A DNA stretch of 64,000 nt, from assembly GCF_020524485.1 (NCBI RefSeq), contig NZ_JAIVLF010000005.1:310001-374000 (forward strand). Reading direction: 5' to 3'. This document shows, one piece after another, positions 53,009 through 64,000 of the stretch. A program made the translations under genes and the position numbers. Below the pieces are notes generated by a model. That model saw nothing but the letters and a program-made list of their open reading frames with translations, ran no database searches and was not told where the DNA came from. The stretch's first letter is position 1, and each line of letters starts with the position of its first letter. Source of the stretch: Novosphingobium profundi. Its GTDB lineage: Bacteria; Pseudomonadota; Alphaproteobacteria; Sphingomonadales; Sphingomonadaceae.

Positions 53009-53043
53009 GAAACACTGTATCGTTTCATGCACGTGCGCGCACG

Positions 53044-60437: not shown

Positions 60438-63101
60438 TTACGCGTCCCAGGGCACGTCGTCGCCCTGGTCCTCGCCCGAGGCAGCCGACTTCTTCGCCGG
60501 GGCCTTCTTCGCGGCGGCCTTCTTCGGCGCCGCCTTCTTGGCCGGAGCCTTTTTCGCGGCCGTCTCGCCCTCGCCGTCGTCGGCCTTCTTCTTGGGCGCG
60601 GCCTTCTTGGCCGGAGCCTTCTTCTTCGCGGGCGCCTTCTTCTTGCCCTTGGGCGGGCCCTTGGCGGCCTTCGCGTCGATCAGGGCGATCGCCTCGGCCT
60701 CGGTCAGGTCCTCGGGCTTGCTGTCGCGCGGGAGCGTGGCGTTGTAGGTGCCGTCGGTCACGTAGGGGCCATAACGACCCGACATGACCTTCATCTCACC
60801 CTCGCTGGTGGGGTGTTTGCCCAGGACCTTGATCGGTTCGGCCTTGGTGCGCCCCCCGCCCCGGCCCGCCGCCGCTTCGGCGAGGATCGAGACCGCGGCG
60901 TTCATGCCCGTCTCGAACACGTCCGCGGTGGTCTTGAGCTTGCCGTACTTGCCATTGTGCAGGAGGTACGGCCCGTAACGCCCGATGTTCGCAACGATTT
61001 CCTCACCCGTTTCGGGGTGCGTGCCGACCGTGCGCGGCAGGCTCAGCAGCTTGACCGCCCAGTCCAGATCAAGCTCGTCGATGTCCTTGGGGATCGAGGC
61101 GCGCTTGGCTTCCTTGCCCTCACCCATCTGGATGTAGGGACCAAAGCGTCCGACCTTGCGCAGGATCTCTTCACCCGTTTCCGGGTGCGAGCCCAGTTCC
61201 TGATCGTCCTGCTGCTCGCCATTGGCGCCGGGCTGGGCGAACTTGCGGGTGAACTTGCACTCGGGGTAGTTCGAGCAGGCGATGAAGGCGCCATAACGGC
61301 CTCCGCGCAGCGCCAGCTTGCCATCCGCGCACTTGGGGCACTGGCGCGGGTCCGAGCCATCGTCCTTGGGCGGAAACAGGAAGTCGGACAGGAACTCGTC
61401 GAGTTCCTTGGTCACATCCGAGGGCTTGAGCTCCATGATCTCGTCGGACTTGGGCTTGAAGTCGCGCCAGAACGCTTCGAGCAGGTCCTTCCACGCCTGG
61501 CGGCCGTCTGAGACGTCGTCGAGTTCGTCCTCCATGCCCGCCGTGAAGTCATAGGCGACATAGCGCTCGAAGAAGCGCTGAAGGAACGAGGTGAGAAGTC
61601 GGCCCGATTCCTCAGCAAAGAAACGGTTTTTCTCGGTCCGCACGTAGTTGCGGTCCTTCAGCACCTGGATCGTCGCCGCGTAGGTCGACGGGCGCCCGAT
61701 GCCCAGTTCCTCCAGCCGCTTGACGAGGCTGGCCTCGGAGAAGCGCGGCGGCGGCTGGGTAAAGTGCTGCTCGGCCGAAACGTCCTTCTTGGCGGGCATG
61801 TCACCGGCCTTCATGAAGGGCAGCAGGCCGCTTTCATCATCGTCCGACTTGTTGTCCTGACCTTCCTCGTAGACGGCCAGAAAGCCCGGGAACTTCACGA
61901 CCTGGCCCGAGGCGCGCAGCTCGGTGCGCCCCGTTCCATCGCGCAAGGTGACCGTGGTGCGCTCCATCTGGGCCGAGGCCATCTGGCTCGCCATCGCGCG
62001 CTTGAAGATGAGGTCGTAGAGACGCCCGGCGTCACCCGAGCCCAGCTTGTCCTTGGTGAAGTCGGTCGGGCGGATCGCCTCGTGGGCTTCCTGCGCGTTC
62101 TTCGCCTTGGTCTCGTAGTGGCGCGGCTTGTCGGGCAGGAAGTGGCCATCATAGCGGTCTGCAACGGCCTTGCGGCAGTCCTGGATCGCGCTCGGGTCCA
62201 TCTGCACGCCGTCGGTACGCATGTAGGTGATCGCGCCCTGCTCGTAGAGCCCCTGCGCCACGCGCATGGTCTGGCTGGCCGAGAAGCCGAGCTTGCGCGC
62301 GGCTTCCTGCTGCAGGGTCGAGGTGGTAAACGGCGGCTGCGGGTTGCGGCGGTGCGGCTTGGTCTCGACGTTCTCGACCTTGAAGGCCCCGCTCTCGACC
62401 GCGGCCTTGGCGCGCATCGCAACGCCCTCATCGCCGAGCGACAGGCGGTCGAGCTTCTCACCCTCGAACTGCACGAGCTTGGCGGTAAAGTCCGTGCCAT
62501 CGTGCGCCATGAGCGCAGCGACCGACCAGTATTCCTGCGGCTTGAACGCCTCGATCTCGCGCTCACGGTCCACGATCAGGCGCAGCGCCACCGACTGCAC
62601 GCGGCCCGCCGACTTGGCGCCGGGCAGCTTGCGCCAGAGCACCGGCGAGAGCGTGAAACCGAACAGGTAGTCAAGCGCACGGCGCGCGAGGTAGGCGTCG
62701 ATCAGGTCCTGGTCGAGCTCGCGCGGCTCTTGCATCGCCTTGGTGACGGTGGCCTTGGTGATCGCGTTGAAGGTGACGCGCTCCACCTCCTTGGGCAGCG
62801 CGCGGCGCTTCTTGAGAAGCTCCAGCACGTGCCAGGAAATGGCCTCGCCTTCGCGATCAGGGTCAGTCGCGAGAATCAGGCGGTCGGCTTCCTTTGCCGC
62901 ATCGGTGATCGCGCGGACCTGCTTCTGCTTGTCGCCATAAAGCTCCCAGTCCATCTCGAAGCCCTCGTCCGGGCGGACCGAGCCGTCCTTGGGCGGCAGG
63001 TCGCGGACGTGGCCGTAGCTGGCGAGCACCTTGTAGTCCTTGCCGAGATACTTCTCGATGGTTTTGGCCTTGGCGGGTGACTCGACGATAACAAGCTGCA
63101 T
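60438..63101 (-). CDS. topA: DNA topoisomerase I
   Basis: TopA (887 residues from ATG 63101) relaxes negative supercoils. The TOPRIM domain starts MQLVIVESPAKAKTIEKYLG and has ATDPDREGEAISWH; the nucleophile Tyr293 is in AITYMRTDGVQ. Zinc-finger repeats follow (CPKCADGKLALRGGRYGAF). The last 70 residues are a Lys/Ala/Pro tail built of KKAPAKK units, a histone-like DNA-binding extension seen in many alphaproteobacterial TopA. The frame is open upstream to 63197 through a Z-DNA-prone tract, but homology begins at 63101. Confidence 0.96.
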   Translation of the reverse strand: MQLVIVESPAKAKTIEKYLGKDYKVLASYGHVRDLPPKDGSVRPDEGFEMDWELYGDKQKQVRAITDAAKEADRLILATDPDREGEAISWHVLELLKKRRALPKEVERVTFNAITKATVTKAMQEPRELDQDLIDAYLARRALDYLFGFTLSPVLWRKLPGAKSAGRVQSVALRLIVDREREIEAFKPQEYWSVAALMAHDGTDFTAKLVQFEGEKLDRLSLGDEGVAMRAKAAVESGAFKVENVETKPHRRNPQPPFTTSTLQQEAARKLGFSASQTMRVAQGLYEQGAITYMRTDGVQMDPSAIQDCRKAVADRYDGHFLPDKPRHYETKAKNAQEAHEAIRPTDFTKDKLGSGDAGRLYDLIFKRAMASQMASAQMERTTVTLRDGTGRTELRASGQVVKFPGFLAVYEEGQDNKSDDDESGLLPFMKAGDMPAKKDVSAEQHFTQPPPRFSEASLVKRLEELGIGRPSTYAATIQVLKDRNYVRTEKNRFFAEESGRLLTSFLQRFFERYVAYDFTAGMEDELDDVSDGRQAWKDLLEAFWRDFKPKSDEIMELKPSDVTKELDEFLSDFLFPPKDDGSDPRQCPKCADGKLALRGGRYGAFIACSNYPECKFTRKFAQPGANGEQQDDQELGSHPETGEEILRKVGRFGPYIQMGEGKEAKRASIPKDIDELDLDWAVKLLSLPRTVGTHPETGEEIVANIGRYGPYLLHNGKYGKLKTTADVFETGMNAAVSILAEAAAGRGGGRTKAEPIKVLGKHPTSEGEMKVMSGRYGPYVTDGTYNATLPRDSKPEDLTEAEAIALIDAKAAKGPPKGKKKAPAKKKAPAKKAAPKKKADDGEGETAAKKAPAKKAAPKKAAAKKAPAKKSAASGEDQGDDVPWDA

Positions 63102-63124
63102 TTCAGACTTTCTAGTATGCCCCT

Positions 63125-63168
63125 CACGTGCGTGCGCATGCACATACACGTGTATGTGTGTACGCATA
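63125..63168. promoter_or_regulatory. 44-nt alternating pyrimidine-purine tract with 18-bp palindrome upstream of topA
   Basis: Every base from 63125 to 63168 alternates pyrimidine-purine without a break, mostly CA/TG, CG and TA steps. Inside it, CACATACACGTGTATGTG (63141-63158) is a perfect 18-bp palindrome. The tract ends 24 bases before the topA ATG. Such sequence can adopt left-handed DNA or a cruciform under negative supercoiling. A functional role is inferred. Confidence 0.6.
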
Positions 63169-63281
63169 GGGTGGGAATCGGATGAACCGTTCGTCAAGCA
63201 CCAATGCGTGACGGCGCGATGGCAAAGGTGGGGATGGCAGGGCCTGCGAACAAGGTTCCGGTGCGCAGCAGAGCCACCGAC

Positions 63282-64000
63282 TTACCCCGCAAGACTGACC
63301 CGGCCTGCGGCATGGCGGGTCAGGCGCCCGGCCAGTTCGAGTTCGAGCAAGGCCAGTTGCACCGCCGACGGGCTTGCCCCGGTCTGGCGAATGAGTTCAT
63401 CGACGCCAACCGGCGCGGTGGTGAGAAGATCGGCGATTTCGGCGGGACTGTCATCCACCGGCGCGATTTCTTCGCAGACGTCCCAGTCCTCGCCCTCCTC
63501 GCGGAAGGTGGAGCGCGGGGACGTGCCGTCGAAGGCGGTGATCAGTTCGCGTACGTCCTCGACCGACTGGACCAGCACCGCCCCGTCGCGGATGAGACCG
63601 TTGCAGCCGTGGGCGCGCGGATCGAGCGGGGAACCGGGGATCGCCATGACCTCGCGCCCCATCTCGCCTGCCAGCCGCGCGGTGATGAGCGAGCCGGACT
63701 TGGGCGCGGCCTCGACCACAAGCGTGCCTGCGCAAAGCCCGGCGATGATGCGATTACGGGCCGGAAAATGGCGCGCCAGCGGCTCGGTGCCGCAGGGCTG
63801 TTCGGCAAGCAGCAGGCCTTTCTCCGCAACCTCGGCCTGAAGTGCCTCGTGCTCGGGAGGATAGGCGATGTCGATACCACTCGCGATCACGCCCACGGTC
63901 GCGCCGCCCGCTGCAAGCGCACCCTGGTGCGCGGCCCCGTCAATGCCCCGAGCAAGCCCCGAGACGACGGTGAAACCTGCCTGCGCCAGACCATAGGCGA
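63282..64000 (-). CDS. dprA: DNA-processing protein DprA, 3' part
   Basis: The gene runs off the right edge; 239 codons are visible. The Rossmann-like DprA core is seen in VVSGLARGIDGAAHQGAL, VGVIASGIDIAYP, HFPARNRIIAGLCAGTLVVEA, SGSLITARLAGEMGREVMAIPGSP and GCNGLIRDGAVLV. A winged-helix C-terminal domain closes it (GVDELIRQTGASPSAVQLAL). DprA loads RecA on incoming single-stranded DNA during transformation. It lies upstream of topA on the same strand with a 180-bp gap. Confidence 0.93.
   Translation of the reverse strand, partial: AYGLAQAGFTVVSGLARGIDGAAHQGALAAGGATVGVIASGIDIAYPPEHEALQAEVAEKGLLLAEQPCGTEPLARHFPARNRIIAGLCAGTLVVEAAPKSGSLITARLAGEMGREVMAIPGSPLDPRAHGCNGLIRDGAVLVQSVEDVRELITAFDGTSPRSTFREEGEDWDVCEEIAPVDDSPAEIADLLTTAPVGVDELIRQTGASPSAVQLALLELELAGRLTRHAAGRVSLAG

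What the first reader, a model, noticed from the sequence alone, without database searches (positions are those of the whole stretch)
63102..63200. Perfect 44-nt Z-DNA-type tract and 18-bp palindrome just before topA
Positions 63125-63168 alternate pyrimidine-purine without exception and include the palindrome CACATACACGTGTATGTG. It lies 24-67 bases upstream of the start codon of DNA topoisomerase I, the enzyme that removes negative supercoils. Supercoil-driven transition of this tract to Z-DNA or a cruciform could feed back on topA expression. The coincidence of element and gene is striking. No such control is known to me.
Basis: partly seen in the sequence, partly recalled or inferred. Interest (0 to 1): 0.75.

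Follow-up and report, generated by a model that had tools for sequence, protein, structure and literature searches.

The report
Alternating tract in topA promoter
Next to the gene for the enzyme that removes DNA supercoils, most sampled members of one bacterial family keep a stretch of DNA in which pyrimidines and purines strictly alternate while its actual letters keep changing, which points to a DNA-shape element, perhaps a supercoiling sensor, controlling that enzyme.

Summary
It is not chance. Upstream of topA, 61 of 61 genus genomes read and 103 of 128 other family genomes read carry the same arrangement: TTGAC(G), about 18 nt, a weak -10 (CACCCT or similar), then a perfect alternating tract of 12-44 nt. 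Letters, length and even register change; alternation does not. Of 246 other TTGAC sites, none has such a run. A consensus 15-mer occurs in 25 of 119 family genomes, each time at topA. Within a length class the G+C count is nearly constant: substitutions tend to compensate, as if an energy were held. The 18-bp palindrome is not conserved and there is no excess dyad symmetry, so cruciform, operator and hairpin readings are disfavoured. Best reading: a supercoiling-responsive topA core promoter whose start region leaves B-form at a set torsion, most likely as Z-DNA. Element: near certain. Topology role: likely, untested. Z-DNA: possible, not shown; TA content and strand bias speak partly against it.

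The parts
63125..63168 (-). 44-nt perfect pyrimidine/purine alternating tract, 23 G+C; on the topA strand TATGCGTACACACATACACGTGTATGTGCATGCGCACGCACGTG
   Evidence: sequence; unique in the genome at 24 nt or more; like tracts in 164 of 189 genus and family genomes read, this one included
63192..63197 (-). -35 element TTGACG
   Evidence: sequence; 163 tract-bearing genomes have TTGAC with 22-24 nt between the hexamer's end and the tract start
63174..63191 (-). 18-bp promoter spacer; purine/pyrimidine class is not conserved over its first 14 nt, the -10-proximal bases are pyrimidine-rich
   Evidence: anchored column counts
63168..63173 (-). presumed -10 element CACCCT; its last T (-7) is also the first base of the tract here
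   Evidence: the A is present in 159 of 172 and the T in 155 of 172 anchored genomes; function inferred
63141..63158 (.). 18-bp palindrome CACATACACGTGTATGTG inside the tract; not conserved as a palindrome
63120..63124 (-). purine stretch AGGGG that ends the tract
   Evidence: tract is followed by AGG in 103 of 163 genomes
60438..63101 (-). topA, DNA topoisomerase I, 887 aa
63282..63998 (-). dprA 3' part (gene runs off the window), upstream neighbour on the same strand

Best explanation
This is a family-specific structural element of the topA core promoter. Sigma-70 RNA polymerase would bind TTGACG and a very poor, G+C-rich -10 (CACCCT). The DNA from about -6 onward, covering the discriminator, the start site and up to ~40 nt of leader, is built of strictly alternating pyrimidine-purine steps with a nearly fixed G+C count. 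I infer that when negative supercoiling rises, this tract leaves B-form at a set torsional threshold, most likely by flipping to Z-DNA. The B-Z junction then sits at the -10, helps to open it and lets topA fire; TopA relaxes the DNA, the tract returns to B-form and the promoter quiets. Shown here: location, architecture, conservation of alternation rather than letters, restriction to topA within the tests made, conserved G+C count, absence of conserved dyad symmetry. Inferred: the -10 assignment and start site, response to supercoiling, its sign, and Z-DNA as the alternative state. My odds: selected cis-element 0.97; role in topology homeostasis 0.65; Z-DNA as the state used 0.35.
For: Genus 61 of 61 read, other family genomes 103 of 128 read. 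Anchoring on the last TTGAC without looking at the tract: 162 of 172 have a run of 14 or more at offset 22-24, against 0 of 246 other TTGAC sites. In 13 genus genomes the register relative to the -10 is opposite to the rest, yet alternation holds. CACCCTCGCGCGTAC: 25 hits in 119 family genomes, 25 of 25 just upstream of topA. Own-genome gyrA, gyrB, parC-like and parE-like upstream regions: longest run 7-11. Three genomes carry promoter plus tract more than 110 nt from the ATG (L075, L088, L225), so there it follows the promoter, not the ribosome site. G+C count variance within length classes 14, 16, 18, 20, 22, 26 is 3.4 to 9 times below column-shuffled controls; in the 26-nt class this holds for positions 15-26 alone. 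Two-state B-Z midpoints of 116 distinct tracts lie at sigma -0.042 to -0.050, with dinucleotide and junction energies as in PMC3024258 Table 1 (passage seen). G+C-rich discriminators are linked to activation by negative supercoiling in PMC8422995 (abstract start and passages).
Against: Nothing here measures supercoiling response, start site or DNA form. Given their G+C count the tracts are less Z-prone than shuffled alternations (z = 13; z = 6 with the ends held), and TA makes up ~26% of YR steps against 3% in the 11 other long YR runs of the genome. The interior is strand-asymmetric (AC 250 to GT 90, CA 191 to TG 54), which a purely duplex-level element would not need. The narrow sigma band is partly a consequence of shared ancestry and of G+C constancy, and it still drifts with tract length (rho 0.58). 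In the window itself the six bases after the -10 are ATGCGT, less G+C-rich than the CGCGCG of most relatives. In vitro, Z-DNA in transcribed DNA blocks E. coli polymerase (recalled: Peck and Wang 1985), the opposite sign. 25 of 128 family genomes do without the tract.
Confidence: 0.4

Rival explanations
1. Alternation is selected for B-form mechanics: every second step is a soft pyrimidine-purine step (TA, CA, CG), so the G+C-rich start region can be untwisted or melted by supercoiling and polymerase without any left-handed state.
For: YR steps favour CG and TA; arrangement melts more easily than G+C-matched alternations by nearest-neighbour energies (z = 6 to 10; energies recalled); TA-rich compared with other YR runs.
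Against: G+C constancy also holds beyond the usual bubble in several length classes; recalled stacking values give the opposite tendency; tracts up to 44 nt exceed what opening needs.
Confidence: 0.25
2. Same element, opposite sign: the Z-form or stalled polymerase in the tract blocks topA transcription, so the tract is a brake or pulse-shaper rather than an activator.
For: The tract covers the presumed start and early transcribed region; Z-DNA blocks transcription in vitro (recalled).
Against: Would give less TopA when supercoiling is too negative, the wrong direction for homeostasis; S. coelicolor topA is induced by negative supercoiling (PMC5055605, abstract and passages).
Confidence: 0.1
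3. A protein (a repressor, a nucleoid protein, or TopA itself) binds the alternating duplex or its Z-form at the topA start.
For: Position at the start region is typical of repressors (recalled); ends of the tract (CGCG......GTA/GTG + AGG) are more conserved than its middle.
Against: Length varies from 12 to 44 nt and register flips; middle letters (offsets 32-37) carry 0.01-0.12 bit beyond the Y/R class; no dyad symmetry.
Confidence: 0.12
4. RNA-level element: alternation in the 5' leader makes a hairpin or tunes translation.
For: Tract plus flanks folds better than fully shuffled sequence (-9.1 against -5.0 kcal/mol, 60 of 116 tracts sampled); strand asymmetry; tract end is 17-23 nt from the ATG in 125 of 163 genomes.
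Against: Folding equals Y/R-preserving shuffles (10 of 40 shuffles at least as stable), and the window's own leader is only 1.3 sd better than shuffles; the first ~6 nt of the tract likely lie upstream of the start site; three genomes have it more than 110 nt from the ATG; no Rfam family at its gathering score (one hit, 21.3 bits against 100).
Confidence: 0.1
5. Cruciform from the 18-bp palindrome.
For: Palindrome present in the window and in its nearest relative (L002).
Against: Absent from the other 28 genus loci shown; tracts show no excess palindromes, and in the 16-, 20- and 26-nt classes symmetry is below the column-shuffled control.
Confidence: 0.02
6. Chance or mutational artefact.
For: None beyond the general G+C-rich composition.
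Against: 0 of 246 control sites; unique in genome; present in 164 of 189 genomes while most of the spacer shows no Y/R conservation.
Confidence: 0.005

Closest known systems
Supercoiling-induced topA promoters (E. coli topA, recalled; Streptomyces coelicolor topAp1, PMC5055605)
   Same: Gene and presumed logic: more negative supercoiling, more TopA.
   Different: There the sensitivity is ascribed to promoter spacing (the introduction of PMC5055605 gives 13-16 bp for the topA promoter in earlier work; here it is 18) and, in E. coli, Fis (recalled); no alternating tract is reported in the passages I read, and the word Z-DNA does not occur in that paper's main text.
G+C-rich discriminator promoters (PMC8422995)
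   Same: CGCGCG directly downstream of the -10 in most relatives; predicted to need negative supercoiling to open.
   Different: A discriminator is a short stretch defined by composition; here 12-44 nt are constrained to alternate.
Z-DNA-prone promoter tracts (mammalian genes; SIBZ, PMC3024258)
   Same: Alternating YR close to a start site, predicted to flip under superhelical stress.
   Different: Those are eukaryotic; alternating RY patterns are under-represented in alphaproteobacteria (PMC4060949, abstract and passages). Here alternation is conserved at a single gene across a bacterial family.

Membership tests
Z-DNA-forming sequence | long perfect pyrimidine/purine alternation | tested here: met
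   44 nt; 12-44 nt in 164 of 189 genomes
Z-DNA-forming sequence | rich in CG and CA/TG, poor in TA | tested here: not met
   TA ~26% of YR steps over 116 distinct tracts (4 of 22 in the window's) against 3% in other YR runs of the genome
Z-DNA-forming sequence | predicted to flip at reachable superhelix density | tested here: inconclusive
   two-state midpoints -0.042 to -0.050 for a 4.2-kb domain, window -0.043; unconstrained sigma in these cells unknown
Z-DNA-forming sequence | left-handed form demonstrated | not testable with these tools
   needs chemistry or antibodies
supercoiling-sensitive sigma-70 promoter | -35 element and -10 with A-11 and T-7 | tested here: met
   A in 159 and T in 155 of 172 genomes anchored on TTGAC; a consensus scan found no sigma-70-like site
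supercoiling-sensitive sigma-70 promoter | G+C-rich discriminator | tested here: inconclusive
   CGCGCG is the consensus of the C-start classes, but the window has ATGCGT
supercoiling-sensitive sigma-70 promoter | activity changes with supercoiling | not testable with these tools
   no expression data held
palindromic operator / cruciform / hairpin | dyad symmetry beyond that of alternation | tested here: not met
   0.504 against 0.507 in shuffles
known structured RNA leader | match to an Rfam family at its gathering score | tested here: not met
   (window 62800-63600)

The most novel reading that the evidence does not exclude
A naturally evolved bacterial DNA-topology switch: a promoter element with no fixed sequence, defined only by pyrimidine/purine alternation and a fixed G+C budget, that flips to left-handed DNA at a set superhelix density and thereby controls the very enzyme that removes negative supercoils. 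It would be conserved through most of the sphingomonad family.
Probability: 0.3. Interest if true: 0.96.

Novelty: new variant of a known kind. Interest (0 to 1): 0.86.

Why it matters
Whether Z-DNA has a natural regulatory role in bacteria has been open since the 1980s (recalled). Here comparative genomics isolates one gene, the one where it makes most physiological sense, in which alternation itself is under strong selection while letters drift. More than 100 distinct natural tracts of different length and composition (116 of even length) make the physical hypothesis directly testable. Even if the state used is not Z-DNA, a promoter element conserved by step type and energy rather than by sequence is unusual, and motif finders would tend to miss it.

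Tried and rejected
Cruciform, operator and RNA hairpin: tested by Y/R-preserving and column shuffles, no excess. N-terminal extension of TopA: the frame is open through the tract in the window, but 99 of 161 genomes have an in-frame stop at or after the tract (two of 163 rows without a start codon at the expected place were dropped). Rfam: nothing at gathering score. The simple promoter scan found no sigma-70-like site; the -10 is far from TATAAT. A transition/transversion comparison (tract 260 to 0, spacer 155 to 267) is circular, because only perfect tracts of equal length were compared; I do not use it. The anchored test and the control sites replace it.

The first call of presence cut the upstream region at 160 nt and wrongly listed G039 as lacking the tract; with 300 nt corrected it (14 nt, 121 nt from the ATG). 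Other losses stand: 25 of 128 family genomes, two of them (G076, G081) with an alternation broken by one or two pyrimidine-pyrimidine steps. Three genus genomes had no topA match (G017, G036, G038; 68-87% complete) and were not read.

The pairwise compensation counts (24 of 28 disjoint pairs with two differences have net zero G+C change, 14 expected, drawn anew: adjacent 10 of 10, non-adjacent 15 of 19) use nearest sequences, not a tree; the column-shuffle test without collapsing identical tracts agrees but is not tree-aware either. Of the 145 genomes with topA, upstream regions were newly read for 17 (4 genus, 13 family) and for 20 of other families. Even tract lengths follow partly from the flanks (pyrimidine before, purine after) and are not counted as evidence. 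The sigma-midpoint model is a two-state calculation that ignores competing transitions; its twist and supercoiling constants are recalled.

Full report
What is there. The window ends in dprA and topA, both on the minus strand. Between the presumed -10 and the topA start codon lies 63125-63168, 44 nt of perfect pyrimidine/purine alternation. A 24-nt YR pattern in the 4.64-Mb genome hits only this tract; an 18-nt pattern finds 11 other places of 18-20 nt. Open frames over ten of those eleven were scanned and six matched Pfam families, so six are probably coding. The window's genus is not named by the tools; named relatives include Novosphingobium, Erythrobacter, Porphyrobacter, Citromicrobium, Sphingomonas and Sphingopyxis, so a Novosphingobium is my inference.

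Conservation. I searched topA in 59 genus, 119 family and 147 order genomes (overlapping; 56, 117 and 145 with a match) and read the upstream DNA of 189 distinct genus and family genomes (loci and regions; tabulated). In 163, TTGAC is followed, 22-24 nt after the hexamer, by a perfect alternating tract of 12-44 nt; one search adds G039. That makes 61 of 61 in the genus and 103 of 128 in the rest of the family. In one search's counts the commonest lengths in the family are 14 (35 genomes), 26 (24) and 20 (19), and in the genus 20 (23). Named records, the best 80 of 593 and partly the same species, give the same picture: 25 of 26 sphingomonad loci have a run of 14 or more within 160 nt upstream of topA (Sphingosinicella microcystinivorans lacks it), while 0 of 54 other alphaproteobacterial loci reach 14; the longest is 13. 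In 20 genomes of seven other families of the order the longest run within 200 nt is 10. As far as sampled, the element is a trait of one family.

Unbiased test. Because tracts were first picked for being perfect, I anchored on the last TTGAC at least 45 nt before the ATG (within 160 nt) without looking at the tract. Of 172 such genomes, 162 have a run of 14 or more at offset 22-24 (60 of 60 genus, 102 of 112 family). The ten others include one 12-nt run (G128) and two tracts with a short break (G076, G081); in the other seven the region after TTGAC does not alternate beyond 9 nt. Of 246 other TTGAC sites on both strands of 77 of these loci, none has such a run. Across the 172, spacer offsets 0-13 carry at most 0.08 bit on purine versus pyrimidine; this rises (0.20-0.52 at offsets 14, 15 and 17) in the pyrimidine-rich bases next to the -10. 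Tract columns (24-37) carry 0.33-0.48 bit even though two registers are mixed, and the middle positions (offsets 32-37) carry only 0.01-0.12 bit on which pyrimidine or which purine. In 13 genus genomes the register relative to the -10 is opposite to the rest. What is kept is alternation.

Exclusive to topA in the tests made. The consensus 15-mer CACCCTCGCGCGTAC occurs in 25 of 119 family genomes, once each, and all 25 lie 13-53 nt upstream of the topA start on the same strand. It covers only C-start tracts with these letters; the window itself does not carry it. Regions upstream of gyrA, gyrB and the parC/parE-like genes in the own genome have runs of at most 7-11 (measured from the start of the family match).

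Energy budget. Within each length class the number of G+C pairs hardly varies: variance 0.47 against 1.70 in column-shuffled controls (14 nt, 36 genomes), 0.57 against 2.19 (20 nt, 42), 0.41 against 2.61 (26 nt, 24). The 16-, 18- and 22-nt classes behave alike, with at most 18 of 2000 shuffles reaching the observed value in any of the six classes. In the 14-, 16-, 18- and 20-nt classes, 20 of 21 distinct tracts two steps from the consensus are balanced; in the 26-nt class the single such tract is not, and there the column consensus is a poor reference. The constraint holds downstream of the usual bubble, positions 9-end in the five classes tested, and 15-26 in the 26-nt class; it does not hold for positions 15-end of the 18- and 20-nt classes or for 1-8 of the 26-nt class. 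Z-transition energy, nearest-neighbour melting energy and G+C count are about equally constrained, so these data cannot say which is selected. Longer tracts are poorer in G+C, 0.67 at 14 nt to 0.52 at 44 nt. A two-state B-Z model puts all 116 distinct tracts at midpoints of -0.042 to -0.050, spread 0.0016 against 0.0044 for random draws from the same dinucleotides (0 of 200 as narrow); midpoints still rise with length, rho 0.58 against 0.45 in the draws.

What it is not. Dyad symmetry (0.504 against 0.507), longest palindrome (7.9 against 7.9) and RNA folding (-9.1 against -8.9 kcal/mol) equal Y/R-preserving shuffles. A leader peptide or N-terminal extension is not general.

Mechanism. The -10 reads CACCCT and the discriminator CGCGCG in most relatives, a promoter expected to be hard to open; the window has CACCCT and ATGCGT. 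In Novosphingobium aromaticivorans most sigma-70 promoters lack T-7 (PMC8407463, passages), whereas topA promoters keep T at this place (155 of 172). G+C-rich discriminators are tied to activation by negative supercoiling (PMC8422995, passages), and topA of Streptomyces coelicolor is induced by it (PMC5055605, passages). I therefore read the element as a supercoiling-responsive promoter whose start region changes form at a set torsion. Z-DNA fits alternation, the indifference to letters and register, and a fixed energy. It does not explain the high TA content, the higher-than-needed Z energy or the strand asymmetry of the interior; soft YR steps in B-form fit the first two better. I give Z-DNA about one in three.

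Novelty. Eight paper searches (open-licence PMC only; the last two returned nothing) gave no listing whose title or abstract start describes a Z-DNA-type or alternating element at a bacterial topA promoter; I read passages of six papers, none in full. A survey finds alternating RY patterns under-represented in alphaproteobacteria (PMC4060949), which makes the retention at topA stand out more.

Noticed in passing
L013 (G032), L006-L008, upstream of topA: A second, shorter alternating stretch follows the main tract in several genus genomes, as if the element had been partly duplicated.
   Followed up: no
L075 (G039), L088 (G051), L225 (Novosphingobium umbonatum): The same promoter and tract lie more than 110 nt upstream of topA; in G051 a TATAAA-like stretch follows, perhaps a second promoter nearer the gene.
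   Followed up: partly
window 53026-53043: Another 18-nt perfect YR run in the window, one of 11 in the genome outside topA; the one frame tested over it had no Pfam match.
   Followed up: partly
tract ends, 163 genomes: The tract usually ends in GTA or GTG followed by AGG, in 125 of 163 genomes 17-23 nt before the ATG; far for a normal ribosome site, function unknown.
   Followed up: no
family genomes G140, G161, G122, G084 and others: 25 of 128 family genomes lack the tract; how topA is controlled there was not examined.
   Followed up: no
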